Assembly: GCF_001719045.1 (NCBI RefSeq)
Contig: NZ_CP015423.1
Span: 5,568,001-5,632,000 of the forward strand
From: Paenibacillus polymyxa
Lineage (GTDB): Bacteria; Bacillota; Bacilli; Paenibacillales; Paenibacillaceae
Direction: 5' to 3'
DNA length: 64,000 nucleotides
Part shown: positions 19,833 through 28,089 of the stretch, in pieces
How the letters are laid out: each line of letters starts with the position of its first letter
Numbering within the stretch: position 1 is the first letter of the stretch
Translations under genes and position numbers: made by a program
Notes under the pieces: model-generated
Databases searched by the model: none
Seen by the model: only the letters and a program-made list of their open reading frames with translations
What the model was told of the DNA's origin: nothing

Positions 19833-19958
19833 GTGAAGGTTTTGGTGGTAGGTTCAAATGGACAAATTGGACAACATCTTATCCATTTTTTGAAAGAAAA
19901 CAAAGAACACACAGTCCGTGCGATGGTTAGGAAACAAGAACAAGCTAATGCTTATCAT
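19833..19958 (+). pseudogene. NAD(P)-binding atypical SDR (YhfK-like), 5' fragment
   Basis: A GTG start after GAGGAG opens MKVLVVGSNGQIGQHLIHFL, then TVRAMVRKQEQANAYHNG. This is the Rossmann GxxGxxG and the basic NADP-contact strand of YhfK/YwnB-type NAD-dependent epimerases. Similarity stops at about 19958. The matching C-terminal part of the same family lies at 27862-28089, so the gene was split by the intervening segment and lost its middle. The truncated frame would run to 20024 with unrelated residues. Confidence 0.75.
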
Positions 19959-19966
19959 AATGGTTC

Positions 19967-20960: not shown

Positions 20961-21073
20961 TTTGAAAGGATATGGTTTCTTTGTACATTCAATATACCAT
21001 TATGAGATAAAAAGAGGAGTTGCGCAGGACTATCCCTCATCCATGTTATGTGGCTTTGTGGCCAGCCCCTCAA

Positions 21074-21685
21074 TTAATGTCTATTAGCTCTTAAACCTTC
21101 AATAAATATGCGGTGTAATCCATCAAGAACTCGTTGGCTTGTAAAGCCTTCATCTTGGAGATGGTAATCGATATTGTGAAGCACGGCCAGCAGGGCTTCA
21201 ATAGTATATGAAATGTCCACCCCGGATACGTCTCCCTGTTCAACGGCCTCATTTAGCAGATTTCTGCTTATATTGCGCATCCATTGACATAACGGAGATT
21301 GTAACGGACGATGCCCGGTTGAGGCCCGGCTGACCTCACAGAGCCAAGGAACTTTCGCTTCTAAAAAAGATACATATCTTACGATTACATGGTAAAGCCG
21401 GTCCAAGGCAGCGGTTTCTGGGGACTGATCAAGAAATGCTTGAACTTCATCAAACAAAGGTTGGTATTCTTCATACGCGATCTCCTGACATATGTCGCCC
21501 TTATCCGAGTAGCGGCGGTATAGGCTTGCTTGTCCTACTCCAGCAGTCTTCGCAATCTGATGCATATTGACATTGTCAACACCGTTTTTGATGAAAAGTT
21601 CTCTAGCCGCCGCCAAAATTCGTCTTCGGTTTAACTCCTCTCTGGGAATTTTCAGAGAGACAGATTGCGATTCTGAATTCATCAT
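21074..21685 (-). CDS. TetR-family repressor of the hydrolase cassette
   Basis: About 203 residues. The N-terminal helix-turn-helix is RRRILAAARELFIKNGVDNV, then IAKTAGVGQASLYRRYSDKG. The C-terminal alpha-helical ligand domain is about 140 residues. AGGGAG is 6 bases before the ATG at 21685, while the ATG at 21691 touches it. The gene is the last of a co-oriented block (lactonase, MFS, amidase, GatC-like). CGGACA/TGTCCG palindromes occur in front of both this gene and the block's first gene, so it very probably autoregulates and represses the cassette. Confidence 0.9.
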   Translation of the reverse strand: MMNSESQSVSLKIPREELNRRRILAAARELFIKNGVDNVNMHQIAKTAGVGQASLYRRYSDKGDICQEIAYEEYQPLFDEVQAFLDQSPETAALDRLYHVIVRYVSFLEAKVPWLCEVSRASTGHRPLQSPLCQWMRNISRNLLNEAVEQGDVSGVDISYTIEALLAVLHNIDYHLQDEGFTSQRVLDGLHRIFIEGLRANRH

Positions 21686-21722
21686 AAACATCTCCCTTCA
21701 TCATTAATTTAACTGTTATTTA

Positions 21723-21757
21723 ACACGAAAAACGGACAATATGTCCGTTTTTCGTGT
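21723..21757. promoter_or_regulatory. TetR operator, 35-bp palindrome
   Basis: A perfect palindrome with 16-base arms around ATA, containing CGGACAATATGTCCG at its core. It lies 38 bases upstream of the tetR start. It could also act as a transcription terminator for the genes upstream, since the arms contain A5/T5. Confidence 0.8.
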
Positions 21758-21759
21758 AT

Positions 21760-21774
21760 AGGACATGTTGTCCG
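21760..21774. promoter_or_regulatory. Second TetR operator upstream of tetR
   Basis: AGGACATGTTGTCCG matches the same operator with one outer mismatch; its centre is 27 bp from the first site. A TATAAT lies just beyond on the minus strand (21783-21788), so both sites are immediately downstream of the -10 element. Confidence 0.65.
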
Positions 21775-21843
21775 TCTTCATATTATAATACATTTCGTGA
21801 AAAATTAAAAATACATTCATTTGGGTGACCGATGAGCTTTTTT

Positions 21844-22035
21844 TTATTTCTTGGTATAGTGCTTTTTGTAAATTGGAGGCAAATGCGGTTCAATGCCCGA
21901 TAGGTCCAGTTCCTTTAAACTTGCGATCGTATGAATAAACTGCTCGTATGCTTTTTTCTTGTCGCTCGTCGTATCTGTTCCGGTTTCGGTTGATGCTTTC
22001 CTGCTAACTTCAGAGTTAAGTTGCTTTTGATCCAT
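21844..22035 (-). CDS. GatC/AtzG-like small amidase partner
   Basis: This 63-residue protein has a polar N-terminus (KQLNSEVSRKASTETGTDTT) and a helical segment YEQFIHTIASLKELDLSGIE, then PHLPPIYKKH. The LxxLDLSGIEP...PP pattern resembles the C-terminal half of GatC, and of the small AtzG-type proteins that clamp amidase-signature subunits such as AtzE. GGAGGG is 6 bases before the ATG. It lies 29 bases downstream of the amidase, in the same operon, so a partner role is plausible. Similarity is short; moderate confidence. Confidence 0.6.
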   Translation of the reverse strand: MDQKQLNSEVSRKASTETGTDTTSDKKKAYEQFIHTIASLKELDLSGIEPHLPPIYKKHYTKK

Positions 22036-22064
22036 AGATTACCCTCCATCAAATATAGTCAGGC

Positions 22065-23453
22065 TTACAAATCCGGATGTCTCTTGTGCCAGTCTGTATT
22101 CATTTCATAAGTATTGCCGATACCTAGTACTGTCGCTTCTTCGAAGGGGCGGCCAATCAATTGCATATTAATCGGCAGACCGGAAGGTGAGAAGCCGCAA
22201 GGCATGCTCAGGCTAGGCAAGCCAGTCAAATTGGTCGGAACCGTAAATGAGTTCAATCTGAATACACTAGCATCATCATCTGCACGCGGCGCAGTGATCG
22301 GTGTTGCCGGCGTCAACAAGATGTCGATTCCGGACAATGCATTCAAAAAATCATTGACAATTAGTTGCCGGGCCCGCTGAGACTGAAGGTAAATGGAAGC
22401 CGGAATATCTCTACTGCTTTCAAGAAACATTCGGACGTCCGGTCCATACTGTTCCAATTCTGTCTCAAGCCACTTCTCGTGGTACGAGTACATTTCCGTC
22501 ATCATAATGGCCATCGTCGCACTTCTAACATGTTTGATCAGGGGCAGGCTAACTTCGATGATTTCTGCTCCCAGTTCTCGGAATTTATTGATAGCGGCCT
22601 TCATCGCAGCTTCCACTTCCGGCATCAAATCCTCGTAATAGTAGCTTGTCGGCAATCCGATACGCACACCCCTGAGACCATTCGGATACATCTTGATACC
22701 TGGCGCAGGCAGATCGACAGTCGATTCATCCTTTGGATCGAAGCCAGACATCACATCCAAGCACAGGGACGCATCCATGACACAGCGGGTCAACGGACCC
22801 GAGTGGTCCAATGACCAGGCCATTGGAATGATACCATACCGACTGACCCGACCGTACGTCGGCTTCATCCCTACGACACCGCACAAAGCAGCGGGTATGC
22901 GGATCGAACCTCCGGTATCCGAGCCTGTGCCCAGATAAGTAAGTCCAGCCGCTAAAGCAGAAGCCGAGCCGCCGCTTGAACCTCCCGTTACAAGTTCAGT
23001 GTTCCACGGATTGAGGCAAGGACCGAAGTGCGGGCTAGTTGTTGTCAATCCCGCAGCGAACTCGTGAGTCTGTACTTTGCCTAGCAGAACTGTTCCAGCC
23101 TCATGTAGCTTAGCTGCAACCGTCGAATCGTAATCGGGGACGAAGCTGTTCAATATTTTTGAACCGGCAGTTGTTCGGATCCCTTTAGTGTAATATAGAT
23201 CCTTATGAACGATGGGAATCCCGTGAAGGGGTCCTTTGTACCGACCATGCATAATATCGCGTTCCGATTGCTTCGCTTGTTCAATCGCCAGTTCGGACGT
23301 TTGGGTAACGAAAACGTTCAGTTTCGGATTCAAACGTTCGATGCGGTGAAGCGCATGTTCTGTAATCTCTACCGGGGATATTTCCCTTGTTCGGATCCCC
23401 TCGGCCAGCTCATGAATAGCAGCAAAGGACAGTTGGAAATTTAATTTACTCAT
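22065..23453 (-). CDS. Amidase-signature hydrolase (GatA/AtzE-like)
   Basis: This 462-residue protein carries a complete Ser-cisSer-Lys triad. GIPIVHKDLYYTKGI holds the Lys. LVTGGSSGGSASALAAG is the amidase signature with the cis-Ser. TGSDTGGSIRIPAALCGVVG holds the nucleophile. The rest follows GatA-type enzymes to RPFEEATVL near the end. GGAGG precedes the ATG. The promoter-proximal hydrolase and the MFS pump lie upstream in the same operon, and a GatC-like protein lies downstream. It probably cleaves an amide in a small imported or exported compound. A CGGACATGT half-operator lies at 23474 between the MFS gene and this one. Confidence 0.92.
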   Translation of the reverse strand: MSKLNFQLSFAAIHELAEGIRTREISPVEITEHALHRIERLNPKLNVFVTQTSELAIEQAKQSERDIMHGRYKGPLHGIPIVHKDLYYTKGIRTTAGSKILNSFVPDYDSTVAAKLHEAGTVLLGKVQTHEFAAGLTTTSPHFGPCLNPWNTELVTGGSSGGSASALAAGLTYLGTGSDTGGSIRIPAALCGVVGMKPTYGRVSRYGIIPMAWSLDHSGPLTRCVMDASLCLDVMSGFDPKDESTVDLPAPGIKMYPNGLRGVRIGLPTSYYYEDLMPEVEAAMKAAINKFRELGAEIIEVSLPLIKHVRSATMAIMMTEMYSYHEKWLETELEQYGPDVRMFLESSRDIPASIYLQSQRARQLIVNDFLNALSGIDILLTPATPITAPRADDDASVFRLNSFTVPTNLTGLPSLSMPCGFSPSGLPINMQLIGRPFEEATVLGIGNTYEMNTDWHKRHPDL

Positions 23454-23498
23454 CTATTCATCCTCCGTCTCTTTCGGACATGTCGTAAGTCTACCAAA

Positions 23499-24821
23499 CT
23501 AATTACCATAGCTTCCGCTACGATTTGCTTTTCTTGCGAATAAGTATGTCAGGATTGCCAACAGGGAAATGGTAAAATAAACAACAGAAAAAGGCATCTT
23601 TAGATCAATCAGTCGGCCGACCAGCGCAGGGCCGAATGCTCCGCCTAGGAGATAGGCCAGTGTGAAAATACCCATCCCTACACCCAGCTCAGCCGAACGG
23701 AGTGTCGTCGAAACTAAATTGCTGCTAGAGGTGAGGACACCGTTGAATCCAATCATAAGGATAATGATCAATAAAGCGTCGATCCATGGCGGCAAATGTA
23801 CGGATACCCCCAGTAGTATAAATCCGCTGATGACGAGACTTTGCGATATGACAAGCACGCGGGAGCTTCCGAAACGATCTGTCCAACCTCCGATCCGGGA
23901 TCCGAGCAAGGCTGCACAGGCGGCACCGGGAAGCATCAGCAGACCGATTTTACTAGTTGGTAAATGAAAGGAATTCTTCATCATGACAGGAAGAGTAAAG
24001 GTTAACCCCGTGTTGCATACGAAGGTAAGGAATCCAATCCCTAGAATTCGTCGGTAAGGAGCATTTTTCATGAAAGATGCATCGATAAATGGATGTTCTT
24101 TTTTCTGAATATGAGTACCGAACCATAGAAGAACTGCTGCTCCTGCAATGAGCATAAACCAATAGTTCGTAACCCCTAGCAATACCAACGCCAGTCCCGC
24201 GGAGAACAAAACAGCTCCGAGAAAATCGAATGAACCGCGGTCGTGTTTCTTGTCAGGAACATACTTGAATATCAAAGGGATAACAAATAGGCTCAGACTG
24301 GACACGATGAACAAAGCACGCCAGCCAAAGTATTGCTCCACGAAACCGCCGAACACAGGCCCGAAGCCGGAAGCAAAGGCAATTGTGGCGGATAAGGTTC
24401 CCAGCACCCGTCCCTTGACTGTAGGCTTAAAATACAGGGTTACTGCCGCATAAGACAGGGGAGAGATGGATGAGGCCCCTGCTGCCTGCAGCAGTCTTCC
24501 AATGATGACTTGCAAGTATGAAGCTGCAAAAAAGCCGATCATAGAGCCGAAAGCTAAAAGGATTAAACCAATGACATACAGCTGGCGAAAGGAAAAGGAC
24601 TCCGTTAACTTGCCGTAAGTACCGGCGCCGATAGCCATCAAAATGCTGTAACCGACCATAACCCAGCTCACCTGCGAGGAGGTCAGGGCAAAGTCAGCGG
24701 AAATCGAAGGTATAGACAAATTAAACATGGTCATATTGATGTTTCCGAAAATAATGAGCAAGCAAAGTGTCCCCATTAATTTCCGCTCATTGCCGGATAA
24801 AGCCATTGATTGAGTATCCAT
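23499..24821 (-). CDS. MFS transporter of the TetR-controlled cassette
   Basis: About 440 residues with 12-14 predicted helices. FGNINMTMFNLSIPSISADF is helix 1. GAGTYGKLTESFSFRQLYVI is the motif A region (degenerate). GFGPVFGGFVEQYFGWRALF is motif C, typical of drug:H+ antiporters. The ATG at 24836 overlaps the lactonase stop, but GGAGGG 9 bases before the ATG at 24821 makes that the likely start. Its place between the lactonase and amidase suggests it moves their substrate or product. Confidence 0.88.
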   Translation of the reverse strand: MDTQSMALSGNERKLMGTLCLLIIFGNINMTMFNLSIPSISADFALTSSQVSWVMVGYSILMAIGAGTYGKLTESFSFRQLYVIGLILLAFGSMIGFFAASYLQVIIGRLLQAAGASSISPLSYAAVTLYFKPTVKGRVLGTLSATIAFASGFGPVFGGFVEQYFGWRALFIVSSLSLFVIPLIFKYVPDKKHDRGSFDFLGAVLFSAGLALVLLGVTNYWFMLIAGAAVLLWFGTHIQKKEHPFIDASFMKNAPYRRILGIGFLTFVCNTGLTFTLPVMMKNSFHLPTSKIGLLMLPGAACAALLGSRIGGWTDRFGSSRVLVISQSLVISGFILLGVSVHLPPWIDALLIIILMIGFNGVLTSSSNLVSTTLRSAELGVGMGIFTLAYLLGGAFGPALVGRLIDLKMPFSVVYFTISLLAILTYLFARKANRSGSYGN

Positions 24822-24835
24822 AGCCTGTCCCTCCA

Positions 24836-25594
24836 TTACAGGAAGTCAGGAAAGGTGCGGCATTTTTGCGCCTGATCTCTATCGTGTCCCAAGAAAACAT
24901 AGGACGGCCGAACATCCTGAATTAACTCCTGCATGCGAGTAATCGATTTGGCAGCCATCTCTTGATCGAATGTCAAGAACGGTACGCTATTCTCGAAGTT
25001 CTCCCGAGTATAAGCAACATCAATTGTCAGTAGCACTGGACCCGACTTTTCCGTTGTGACAAGGACTGATTGATGGCCAGGGGAATGACCCGGAGTGAAT
25101 AAAGTTTGAACCCCCGGAATCAATTCATGGTCACCCTCAATGATTTGATATTGTAAATCGGGCAGCCTGCACTCTAATGGAGAGTAATCCTCATTGTTTA
25201 TGGCCGCATCATACTCTGCCCTTTGAATAAGGATCGGCGTATTGCGGAAATGCCCGTTTCCCCCAGAATGATCCAAGTGTAAATGGGAGCTAATGACCAT
25301 TTGAATATCGTCAGGTCGATAACCTACACGCTTTAACACATTTACGATCGAGTCGCCGTCAGACATGTTGGGGACGACGCGCCCTTCACGTCTAGTCCCC
25401 TTGTAGTAATCGGGATTGTTGATAAAAGCGTCGGGCATTCCCGTATCGATGAGTATCGGCCCGCTGGTCGTTTCCAATAGAAAAGACCACACAGGCATTC
25501 CGACTAATTTCCCGGGGGCAAGGGTTCGATTAACTGCCGATTGATCTAGGAAACATTCACCTACAGGTAAAAAATACAACTTTTTTATATTCAT
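24836..25594 (-). CDS. Metallo-beta-lactamase-fold lactonase (AHL-lactonase type)
   Basis: About 252 residues. The di-metal motif is SSHLHLDHSGG (HxHxDH), followed by PGHSPGHQSVL, LLTIDVAYT (metal-bridging Asp and the lactonase Tyr) and VFLGHDRDQ. This set matches the AiiA/AhlD group of N-acyl-homoserine lactonases rather than beta-lactamases. AAGGGTG lies about 9 bases before the ATG at 25594. It is the first gene after a perfect promoter with TetR operators. Quorum quenching or opening of another lactone is likely; the substrate is not proven by sequence. Confidence 0.85.
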   Translation of the reverse strand: MNIKKLYFLPVGECFLDQSAVNRTLAPGKLVGMPVWSFLLETTSGPILIDTGMPDAFINNPDYYKGTRREGRVVPNMSDGDSIVNVLKRVGYRPDDIQMVISSHLHLDHSGGNGHFRNTPILIQRAEYDAAINNEDYSPLECRLPDLQYQIIEGDHELIPGVQTLFTPGHSPGHQSVLVTTEKSGPVLLTIDVAYTRENFENSVPFLTFDQEMAAKSITRMQELIQDVRPSYVFLGHDRDQAQKCRTFPDFL

Positions 25595-25622
25595 CCCAGT
25601 TTCACCCTTCATATTATAAATT

Positions 25623-25676
25623 CGGACAGTTTGTCCGTTTTGTTTTGATTATATCGGACAAATTGTCCGATGTCAA
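25623..25676 (-). promoter_or_regulatory. Perfect sigma-A promoter with two TetR operators
   Basis: On the minus strand TTGACA (25676-25671) and TATAAT (25653-25648) are exactly 17 bases apart. The spacer is filled by CGGACAATTTGTCCG plus one base on each side. A second palindrome, CGGACAAACTGTCCG, lies just downstream of the -10 element (25637-25623). Repressor binding would block both polymerase entry and escape, giving tight control of the lactonase-MFS-amidase operon. Confidence 0.88.
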
Positions 25677-25862
25677 TTTGTCATCGGCGGTTGGGCTTCG
25701 GCAAAAGCCTTACACCTGCAACAATACGCCAAGCTAAAGAATGTCGCCTAGGTGGAGTGCAAAGAAACAACGGGGCTGCGTTAAAGCCGCAGTGTACAAA
25801 AACCAAGGGGATCGCGATATCAAAGTGAGCAAGAGTATTTGCGGCTAAAGAGCCACGCAAGA

Positions 25863-25982: not shown

Positions 25983-26096
25983 CTACCCGTTTACCCCGTG
26001 GTTGAAAGGTACAACTGTTTCAGTAGGAGAAGTAATTGGAACGATAGCGCTAAAAAGCGCAACTGCTAGGCACATATCCGCCAATGCTTTTTTCAT
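25983..26096 (-). CDS. Phr/AloP-like secreted signal pro-peptide
   Basis: A 37-codon gene with AAAGGGAG 9 bases before its ATG. It starts MKKALADMCLAVALFSAIVP, a short cationic-plus-hydrophobic secretion signal, and ends in a polar tail TETVVPFNHGVNG. It overlaps the end of the TPR receptor-like gene by 47 bases, the standard layout of Rap-Phr pairs. I recall that a described P. polymyxa AloR/AloP system uses a mature hexapeptide of the form SHGRGG. The last six residues here, NHGVNG, share the xHGxxG form. The signal gene looks intact although its receptor is truncated. Confidence 0.6.
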   Translation of the reverse strand: MKKALADMCLAVALFSAIVPITSPTETVVPFNHGVNG

Positions 26097-26400
26097 TTGT
26101 CAGCACTCCCTTTATAATATTTTCATATTGTTGTTGCTGCTCAGTTGTAGCTAATTTTCGCACTTTTTCATACATAGCAGTGGTTGTAATGAATTCCTTA
26201 TATACATTCATATGAACTGCTATTGATAGATATTCCAGTATATAATTTATTGTGTCATGATAGGAACTTTGGTTGAGTTTATAAATTGCTAATTGATGCA
26301 ACTTTCCATTCAGTGAACCAGAAGTGACCGTATGTCTGATCGTGATCGTTTTATTGAACAGATCAATGGAAGACCATTTTAGACCTACAACCTCACCCAA
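26050..26400 (-). pseudogene. Integrase fragment fused to a Rap/Alo-type TPR receptor C-terminus
   Basis: The first 26 codons (GEVVGLKWSSIDLFNKTITI) are the box I region of a phage-type tyrosine recombinase, lacking the catalytic Arg. From about codon 30 the frame changes character: KLHQLAIYKLNQSSYHDTIN, then YILEYLSIAVHMN...YEKVRKL. This is the helical C-terminal repeat of RRNPP (Rap/AimR/Alo) peptide receptors. The N-terminal effector domain is missing. Because the downstream signal-peptide gene overlaps its end, this was a receptor-signal pair before recombination. Confidence 0.55.
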
Positions 26401-27861: not shown

Positions 27862-28089
27862 CTGGAAAGCAGCAGTTTGAACTACACAATCATAAGACTG
27901 GGGATTCTTTTGAATGAAATCGGTACGGGAAAAGTGGCTGCCGCGGAGAATATCACCTATGGCAGTATCCCACGTGAGGATGTAGCCCGTGCCATTGTGG
28001 CAGCTTTAGATGAGGAGAACACATACAAGCGAGCATTTGATCTGATTACTGGTGACGATTCAGTTGTCGAAGCATTGCAAAAAATCTGA
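27862..28089 (+). pseudogene. NAD(P)-binding atypical SDR (YhfK-like), 3' fragment
   Basis: The frame reads LESSSLNYTIIRLGILLNEI, then AAENITYGSIPREDVARAIV and FDLITGDDSVVEALQKI. This is the last third of the YhfK/YwnB family, including the IIRPGxLLNEPGTG substrate-loop region (Pro-Gly replaced by Leu-Gly). A TAG directly precedes it. It is the missing end of the gene starting at 19833. Together the two pieces lack about 100 central residues. Confidence 0.75.

What the first reader, a model, noticed from the sequence alone, without database searches (positions are those of the whole stretch)
21074..25676. TetR-controlled lactonase-MFS-amidase-GatC-like cassette
An AHL-lactonase-type hydrolase, an antiporter-like MFS, a GatA-like amidase and a tiny GatC-like partner are co-oriented and share one operator type with their TetR. 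A lactone-opening plus amide-cleaving pair next to a pump would fully dismantle an N-acyl-homoserine lactone or a lactone-amide antibiotic. I know of no described system with this exact composition.
Basis: partly seen in the sequence, partly recalled or inferred. Interest (0 to 1): 0.75.

Follow-up and report, generated by a model that had tools for sequence, protein, structure and literature searches.

The report
Mobile lactone-and-amide dismantling operon
A small, self-contained and horizontally travelling operon in soil bacteria seems to switch on when a particular lactone-amide molecule arrives, open its ring, cut its amide bond and pump out what is left, although the target molecule is still unknown.

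Summary
The five genes are real and co-oriented on the minus strand: AiiA-type lactonase, MFS exporter, amidase, 63-residue GatC-like protein, TetR. They share a CGGACA-N3-TGTCCG operator; one copy fills the 17-base spacer of a perfect TTGACA/TATAAT promoter, and close variants of this layout recur in 13 of 13 loci examined. The unit is a compact ~4.65 kb horizontally moved cassette: its DNA is 93-96% identical in four Paenibacillus genomes whose gatA DNA is only 75-77% identical, and shared homology ends near the promoter and the tetR stop. A pump-less core (TetR, amidase, GatC-like, AiiA) occurs in P. ottowii, Paenactinomyces and Bacillus atrophaeus. The amidase/GatC-like pair descends from another conserved cluster (LysR, isochorismatase-type hydrolase, oligopeptide importer), seen at 9 of 19 amidase loci. 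The lactonase keeps its catalytic residues, but F64/F68/F107 of B. thuringiensis AiiA are Tyr/Arg/Leu, so long-chain acyl-homoserine lactones are possible but not the favoured substrate. My reading: a TetR-inducible two-enzyme cassette against a lactone-amide with a polar or short side group, substrate undetermined. My searches found no described system of this composition; closest are Rhodococcus qsd and AtzE-AtzG.

The parts
25648..25676 (-). Operon promoter TTGACA-N17-TATAAT, 12 of 12 consensus bases; the spacer is TCGGACAATTTGTCCGA, i.e. operator 1
   Evidence: variants of the layout (10-12 of 12, spacer 16-18) in 13 of 13 loci examined
25655..25669 (.). Operator 1, exact CGGACANNNTGTCCG, inside the promoter spacer
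25623..25637 (.). Operator 2, exact, 32 bases downstream of operator 1, just before the lactonase start
24836..25612 (-). AiiA-family metallo-lactonase (258 aa as listed; probable true start at 25594, 252 aa); HLHLDH, H176, D198, Y201, H243 kept; Y70/R74/R75/L113 at the AiiA F64/F68/V69/F107 positions
23499..24836 (-). MFS transporter nearest to Tet(L)/FexA-type exporters, start overlapping the lactonase stop by one base
   Evidence: 94-99% identical in 8 other genomes with the full cassette; absent in 3 of 12 amidase-plus-AiiA loci
23475..23489 (.). Degenerate third operator (CGGACATGTCGTAAG, 3 mismatches) before the amidase; one mismatch at this spot in P. pabuli, P. alvei and P. macerans
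22065..23453 (-). Amidase-signature hydrolase (462 aa); K84, S159 and S183 in the HKD, GGSSGGS and TGSDTGGS motifs fit the Lys / cis-Ser / Ser triad (triad assignment recalled); below the GatA and AtzE curated cutoffs
21844..22035 (-). 63-aa GatC-like partner: predicted helix 23-41 (low confidence), then the conserved ELDLSGIEPHLPP arm
21760..21774 (.). Operator in front of tetR, one mismatch
21733..21747 (.). Operator in front of tetR, exact, within a longer inverted repeat (read by eye)
21074..21691 (-). TetR-family regulator (205 aa), presumed owner of the operators
   Evidence: beside the amidase/AiiA pair in 12 of 12 such loci
21024..25685 (.). Approximate extent of the transferred unit: in P. 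alvei, P. macerans, P. pabuli (G001), G031, G039 and G041 homology starts at 21024-21073 and ends at 25677-25685 (25776 in P. macerans)

Best explanation
A mobile, TetR-repressed detoxification or signal-dismantling operon. Without ligand, TetR sits on the operator that fills the promoter spacer and on the next one, shutting the operon and its own gene. When the target enters the cell, TetR lets go. The AiiA-type enzyme opens a lactone ring. The amidase, stabilised by the GatC-like peptide as in AtzE-AtzG, cuts an amide bond of the same molecule, which makes inactivation irreversible. The MFS pump, an add-on in the main Paenibacillus version, removes the compound or its products. Shown here: gene content, operators and promoter, conservation, purifying selection, horizontal transfer, intact active-site residues, altered lactonase pocket, relationship of the amidase pair to the importer cluster. 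Inferred: repression by this TetR, amidase/GatC-like complex, action of both enzymes on one molecule, direction of transport. The target is not established. A homoserine-lactone-like or other lactone-amide with a short or polar, perhaps anionic, side group would fit the pocket better than a long-chain AHL.
For: Amidase, GatC-like, AiiA and TetR stay together in 12 loci of Paenibacillus, Paenactinomyces and Bacillus, with the same operator. Of 18 AiiA loci of this sub-clade 12 have the amidase beside them, against 0 of 9 loci of other AiiA types, within the stretches held. Operator inside a promoter of 10-12 of 12 consensus bases in 13 of 13 loci examined. Cassette DNA 93.4-95.7% identical to G041, G039, G031 and G001, whose gatA DNA is 75.5-77.0% identical, while the close relative G015 has gatA at 92.3% but only a 75% match in the amidase region. 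dN/dS 0.09-0.17 for lactonase, pump and amidase against six diverged copies. Catalytic residues kept. AtzG is a non-catalytic, obligate partner of AtzE (passages of PMC6219798). QsdR, a TetR-type protein, represses a lactonase operon and is released by homoserine lactone (passages of PMC6262395).
Against: No biochemical evidence that both enzymes act on one molecule. 6 of 18 sub-clade AiiA loci lack the amidase (two of these AiiA genes are broken or partial), and 5 of those 6 also lack the operator, so the lactonase may act alone. The amidase is 58-71% identical to enzymes in a cluster with no lactonase, so it might process an unrelated small amide. The small protein matches GatC only weakly (PDB profile hit E 0.054; hhalign probability 3.5%; no Pfam family), and its model is low confidence (pLDDT 64.7). 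The pocket argument is suggestive only: positions 68-69 vary among F107-type AiiAs too (often Glu/Asp), the sub-clade itself has exceptions (F64 in B. atrophaeus, G68 in P. ottowii, Q68 in A. dauci), and the genome's second AiiA also lacks F68 and F107 (P68, M107).
Confidence: 0.6

Rival explanations
1. Classical quorum quenching: the cassette destroys N-acyl-homoserine lactones completely (lactonase, then amide cleavage of the acyl-homoserine), protecting a Gram-positive host from toxic AHLs or disrupting neighbours, as a one-operon counterpart of Rhodococcus qsd.
For: Lactonase exceeds the curated AiiA cutoff; an AHL amidase is proposed to work with the qsd operon from outside it, and 3-oxo-AHLs are cited as bactericidal to Gram-positives (passages of PMC6262395); an 'AmiE amidase family' of AHL acylases is listed in a review (passages of PMC5474475).
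Against: F64, F68 and F107, listed as pocket residues of an AiiA (one passage of PMC12388617; a phenylalanine clamp is cited in PMC6062542), are Tyr in 26 of 27 and Arg/Lys in 26 of 27 at 64 and 68 among database members selected by L107 and R69. 3 of the 8 genus genomes with the cassette also carry a second AiiA, though that one is not of the full-clamp type either, so the redundancy argument is weak.
Confidence: 0.33
2. Resistance to, or catabolism of, a lactone-amide antibiotic or mycotoxin (for example a dihydroisocoumarin amide), with the pump as first line and the two hydrolases as second.
For: TetR plus an MFS nearest to Tet(L)/FexA plus hydrolases is a resistance-type layout; mobile cassette in different genomic sites; basic Arg/Lys-Arg pair at the pocket loop might suit an anionic ligand.
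Against: No known resistance determinant identified: the MFS scores 190 bits against a cutoff of 650 at best and is absent from 3 of 12 loci. I did not search the flanks systematically for biosynthetic clusters. The compound class named is from my own knowledge, not from a call.
Confidence: 0.35
3. Two unrelated functions sharing a regulator: AiiA-type lactonase for one compound, amidase/GatC-like pair for an unrelated small amide (nitrogen scavenging).
For: The amidase pair's relatives live in importer-linked clusters with an isochorismatase-type hydrolase nearest to RutB, and stand-alone AiiA of the same sub-clade exists in Cohnella pontilimi, Baia soyae and Alicyclobacillus dauci.
Against: The AiiA-linked amidases sampled form one well-supported clade (100/99) apart from one metagenome row, and stay with AiiA and the operator in three genera; no isochorismatase-type gene or binding protein of the importer cluster was found in the cassette loci, only generic ABC matches of 31-33% in two.
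Confidence: 0.2

Closest known systems
Rhodococcus erythropolis qsd operon (QsdR, QsdA, QsdC; passages of PMC6262395 seen)
   Same: TetR-family repressor beside a lactonase gene, palindromic putative operators, proposed need for an amidase to complete the system
   Different: QsdA is a phosphotriesterase-like lactonase, the operon carries an acyl-CoA ligase, the amidase is outside the operon, and no GatC-like protein appears in the passages seen
AtzE-AtzG (1-carboxybiuret amidohydrolase; passages of PMC6219798 seen; biuret hydrolase structure 6c62, which I recall to be AtzE)
   Same: Amidase-signature enzyme with a small non-catalytic GatC-derived partner encoded next to it
   Different: Cassette amidase scores 323.9 bits against the AtzE cutoff of 425.75; partner only motif-level similar to GatC and not compared with AtzG itself; no cyanuric acid genes
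AiiA of Bacillus thuringiensis (PDB 3dha, 2a7m; species attribution partly recalled)
   Same: 57% identity; metal ligands and Y194 kept
   Different: F64/F68/V69/F107 replaced by Tyr/Arg/Arg/Leu; embedded in a regulated operon
LysR / isochorismatase-type hydrolase / amidase / GatC-like / oligopeptide importer cluster of Cohnella and Paenibacillus relatives (found here; no name known to me)
   Same: Amidase 58-71% identical with a GatC-like ORF directly downstream
   Different: No lactonase, cassette TetR, operator pair or cassette MFS; importer and LysR regulators instead
GatCAB amidotransferase
   Same: Amidase and small protein are distant relatives of GatA and GatC
   Different: Below the GatA cutoff (368.5 vs 481.1); no GatB in the operon; the genome has its own gatC-gatA-gatB

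Membership tests
AiiA-type AHL lactonase | Curated whole-protein score (NF045699 cutoff 375) | tested here: met
   439.6 bits; the own genome's second AiiA scores 402.7
AiiA-type AHL lactonase | HXHXDH, H169, D191, H235 metal ligands and Y194 | tested here: met
AiiA-type AHL lactonase | Phenylalanine pocket F64, F68, F107 (a feature of B. thuringiensis AiiA, not shared by all curated members) | tested here: not met
   Y, R, L in the window; among 27 database members selected by L107 and R69, Tyr64 in 26 and Arg/Lys68 in 26; two further relatives of about 70% with V107 were left out by that selection (P0138, P0167)
AiiA-type AHL lactonase | Hydrolysis of AHLs | not testable with these tools
   needs purified enzyme
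AtzE-AtzG amidase pair | AtzE curated score (TIGR02715 cutoff 425.75) | tested here: not met
   323.9 bits
AtzE-AtzG amidase pair | Small GatC-derived partner encoded next to the amidase | tested here: inconclusive
   small ORF beside the amidase in the window and in all 9 importer-linked loci; GatC is the best of 177,635 PDB sequences but at E 0.054; Pfam GatC reaches only 16.2 of 23 bits in one of 5 proteins tried and nothing in the window protein
GatCAB amidotransferase | GatA curated score and gatB partner | tested here: not met
   368.5 vs 481.1; gatC, gatA and gatB elsewhere in the genome
qsd-type quorum-quenching operon | TetR-type repressor with operator palindromes at a lactonase promoter | tested here: met
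   (sequence level; binding not tested)
qsd-type quorum-quenching operon | Phosphotriesterase-like lactonase and acyl-CoA ligase | tested here: not met
   metallo-beta-lactamase family instead, no further gene in the operon
Tet(L)/FexA drug efflux MFS | Curated scores of named pumps | tested here: not met
   best 190 bits against a cutoff of 650: a relative, not a known resistance pump

The most novel reading that the evidence does not exclude
A previously undescribed mobile operon family that completely dismantles a lactone-amide. An AiiA sub-clade with a rebuilt, basic pocket has been paired with a GatCA-derived amidase taken from an importer-linked catabolic cluster, under one TetR whose operator occupies the promoter spacer. 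Its natural target would be a lactone-amide signal or antibiotic other than ordinary AHLs, so part of what databases name 'AHL lactonase AiiA' would be misnamed.
Probability: 0.33. Interest if true: 0.75.

Novelty: new variant of a known kind. Interest (0 to 1): 0.6.

Why it matters
It gives a directly testable operon in which both halves of complete lactone-amide breakdown are co-transferred and co-regulated. In Rhodococcus the amidase is outside the operon and its role was left for future work (PMC6262395, passages). It flags an AiiA sub-clade that automatic annotation names AHL lactonase although its acyl pocket differs. It shows a GatC-like peptide travelling with a non-tRNA amidase that falls below the AtzE cutoff, in two kinds of gene neighbourhood. 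The TetR/operator/promoter unit is compact enough to serve as a biosensor for finding the ligand.

Tried and rejected
GatCAB or AtzE membership: rejected on curated cutoffs. Plasmid carriage: no plasmid record covers more than 3% of the cassette (7 records, amidase-region matches only), and all 488 plasmid records with an AiiA match are below 60% identity. TetR as a QsdR relative: I saw no QsdR entry among the 57 PDB sequences at E <= 0.001; best are SCO3833 and other generic TetR proteins; a weak ScbR-family score (45.5 of 150 bits) was not pursued. Phylum-wide sample for the amidase: 2 of 398 genomes, both already known. Whole-genome operator search: 244 matches per strand at up to 2 mismatches, the same as its reversed control, so uninformative at that laxity; its capped listing shows one exact site, at the start of a radC-like gene (by eye), and did not list the window's own sites, so I do not use it as a regulon count. 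Sporomusa, Caproiciproducens and Lacrimispora amidases fall inside the cassette clade but their neighbourhoods were out of reach. dN/dS against the near-identical L082 and L083 (few changes; 0.16-0.43 where defined and above zero) and the saturated L090 and L058 is not in the quoted ranges. The structure model of the 63-mer was too weak to search with.
Full report
WHAT IS THERE. Five co-oriented genes occupy window 25612-21074 on the minus strand. In order of transcription they are an AiiA-family lactonase (NF045699, 439.6 bits, cutoff 375), an MFS transporter nearest to Tet(L)/FexA-type pumps but far below their cutoffs, an amidase-signature hydrolase (PF01425, E 6e-123), a 63-aa ORF without a Pfam or NCBIfam family, and a TetR-family regulator. 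The lactonase stop and the MFS start overlap as TAATG. Many relatives start six residues later than the listed lactonase ORF, so the true start is probably 25594.

REGULATION. Exact CGGACANNNTGTCCG palindromes lie at 25623, 25655 and 21733, with a one-mismatch copy at 21760 (1 of 100 shuffles of the window reached the observed 6 matches at up to two mismatches). The operon promoter is a perfect TTGACA-N17-TATAAT at 25676-25648, the only 12/12 promoter in the scanned stretch; promoter-like sites in general are not more frequent than in shuffles. Its 17-base spacer is the operator plus one base on each side. I examined 13 loci (window and 12 relatives) by taking the best-scoring promoter within 140 bases upstream of the first gene. 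In all 13 an operator-like palindrome lies in or across the spacer: 12/12 in 5 loci, 11/12 in 6 and 10/12 in 2. Spacers are 16-18 bases; in B. atrophaeus the spacer copy has two mismatches, and in P. ottowii its last base falls in the second hexamer. In P. ottowii, B. atrophaeus and Paenactinomyces the promoter faces the amidase rather than the lactonase; the gene start for Paenactinomyces was my estimate, as its amidase is disrupted. This is strong sequence evidence for direct repression; that this TetR is the binder is inferred from its constant presence. Five sub-clade AiiA loci without the amidase have no such operator pair.

A TRAVELLING CASSETTE. The same five genes occur in six other genomes of the genus sample and, by named records, in P. 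pabuli (one of the six), P. alvei and P. macerans. In the six distant species homology to the window starts at 21024-21073 and ends at 25677-25685, or 25776 in P. macerans, close to the tetR stop and the promoter. Beyond that their flanks do not match the window's. Among themselves most differ, but G041 and P. pabuli share part of one flank and G039 and G031 a short stretch; the nearest relatives G033 and G014 match the window further out. Cassette DNA is 95.7, 95.1, 94.9 and 93.4% identical to the window in G041, G039, G031 and G001, whose gatA DNA is only 75.5-77.0% identical. G015 (P. ottowii) has gatA at 92.3% but a best match of only 75% over 1312 bases of the cassette. This is horizontal transfer of the unit. 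No mobility gene is part of the shared block. dN/dS against six diverged copies (L084-L089) is 0.10-0.17 for the lactonase, 0.10-0.16 for the pump, 0.09-0.13 for the amidase, 0.13-0.43 for TetR and 0.28-0.56 for the 63-mer, the last on few changes.

CORE AND ACCESSORY PARTS. P. ottowii, Paenactinomyces guangxiensis (amidase disrupted there) and Bacillus atrophaeus carry TetR, amidase, GatC-like protein and AiiA with the operators but without the MFS. In B. atrophaeus the unit sits between abnA-like and araA-like genes (by eye). Gordonibacillus has a deletion derivative: AiiA, 200 residues of MFS, TetR. Counting distinct loci, 12 of 18 loci of this AiiA sub-clade have the amidase next to them. 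The six without it are Gordonibacillus, Cohnella pontilimi, Baia soyae, A. dauci, Paenibacillus CC-CFT747 with an AiiA in three pieces, and Aneurinibacillus with a partial AiiA; the last two are assigned by identity only. None of the 9 loci with other AiiA types has it within the 11-16 kb held. Relatedness among loci means these are not independent events.

WHERE THE AMIDASE CAME FROM. In 394 genomes of the family the amidase (E <= 1e-150) was found in 19. Ten are AiiA cassettes; nine have no AiiA in the stretch held. All nine have LysR-type regulators and an oligopeptide-type ABC ATPase near the amidase. Eight of nine have an isochorismatase-type cysteine hydrolase, nearest in the PDB to RutB. 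Eight of nine have a family-5 solute-binding protein; in the ninth the contig ends first. A GatC-like ORF follows the amidase in all nine. The AiiA-linked amidases form one clade (100/99, with 4 rows of unknown context inside) nested among the importer-linked ones, apart from one metagenome row. The simplest account is that the cassette borrowed an amidase/GatC-like pair from a catabolic importer cluster.

THE SMALL PROTEIN. Across 15 aligned members E49, P50 and P54 are invariant and I48 nearly so: the SLKELDLxGIEP arm resembles the NELDTxxIEP stretch of GatC. A profile search of all PDB chains puts GatC first (3h0l_C, E 0.054; 4wj3_C also listed, E 1.6). The hhalign comparison is inconclusive (probability 3.5%, E 0.012). 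The model predicts one helix (23-41) and an extended tail at low confidence. GatC-like is therefore a well-motivated, not proven, assignment. In AtzE-AtzG the partner is non-catalytic and AtzE is insoluble without it (PMC6219798, passages).

THE LACTONASE POCKET. In an alignment of 102 rows (summarised) the window enzyme keeps C14, T67, H104, H106, D108, H109, H169, D191, Y194 and H235 of AiiA. It has Y, R, R and L at F64, F68, V69 and F107. Among 27 database members selected by L107 and R69, position 64 is Tyr in 26 and position 68 is Arg or Lys in 26. The 37 database members with F107 have Phe at 64 in 32, and acidic residues at 68 in 19 and at 69 in 25. Exceptions within the sub-clade: F64 in B. 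atrophaeus, G68 in P. ottowii, Q68 in A. dauci, and V107 in two database relatives. F64, F68 and F107 are listed as substrate-pocket residues in PMC12388617 (one passage). PMC6062542 says F68 and E135 narrow the AiiA site and cites a phenylalanine clamp for longer AHLs (passages); the original clamp paper is not held. The own genome, G014 and G015 (3 of the 8 genus genomes with the cassette) also carry a stand-alone AiiA, of yet another type (F64, P68, M107). So the two AiiAs of one cell differ, but neither has the full clamp. These are sequence inferences; AHL activity has not been measured.

KNOWN SYSTEMS. The nearest concept is the R. erythropolis qsd operon: a TetR (QsdR) released by homoserine lactone, a lactonase, and an AHL amidase outside the operon (PMC6262395, passages). 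An 'AmiE amidase family' of AHL acylases is listed in PMC5474475 (passages). My literature searches for lactonase, amidase and TetR combinations (listings only, except the papers named) showed no system with this composition. The library lacks most subscription papers.

VERDICT. A real, conserved, mobile, TetR-linked lactonase-amidase cassette. AHL as substrate is possible but not favoured. Novelty: a new variant of known kinds of part in a combination I found undescribed.

Noticed in passing
window 19833-19965 and 27877-28083: The two ends of one NAD(P)-binding SDR-like gene seem to lie on either side of the region (N-terminal piece VKVLVVGSNGQIGQHLI..., C-terminal piece NYTIIRLGILLNEIGTGK...; family recognised by eye), as if an island of about 8 kb containing the cassette had interrupted it.
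   Followed up: partly
window 26050-26400: ORF resembling a fragment of a phage-type integrase (by eye), a possible remnant of the element that brought the island.
   Followed up: no
G000:C1:127387-128136 (L108): Second, stand-alone AiiA (56% identical to the cassette one; F64, P68, M107) in the same genome, above the AiiA cutoff, without cassette amidase, TetR or operator in the 16 kb held.
   Followed up: partly
L091-L099 (nine genomes): Conserved cluster LysR / isochorismatase-type hydrolase / amidase / GatC-like / oligopeptide ABC importer, perhaps an amide-scavenging system; I made no literature search for it.
   Followed up: partly
L054 5174-6342: Gordonibacillus kamchatkensis cassette with an internal deletion: a 200-residue MFS piece directly followed by tetR; no amidase or GatC-like match on the 8.2 kb contig.
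   Followed up: no
window 21727-21760: The exact operator before tetR is the centre of a longer inverted repeat, which might also act as a terminator between the 63-mer gene and tetR (read by eye).
   Followed up: no
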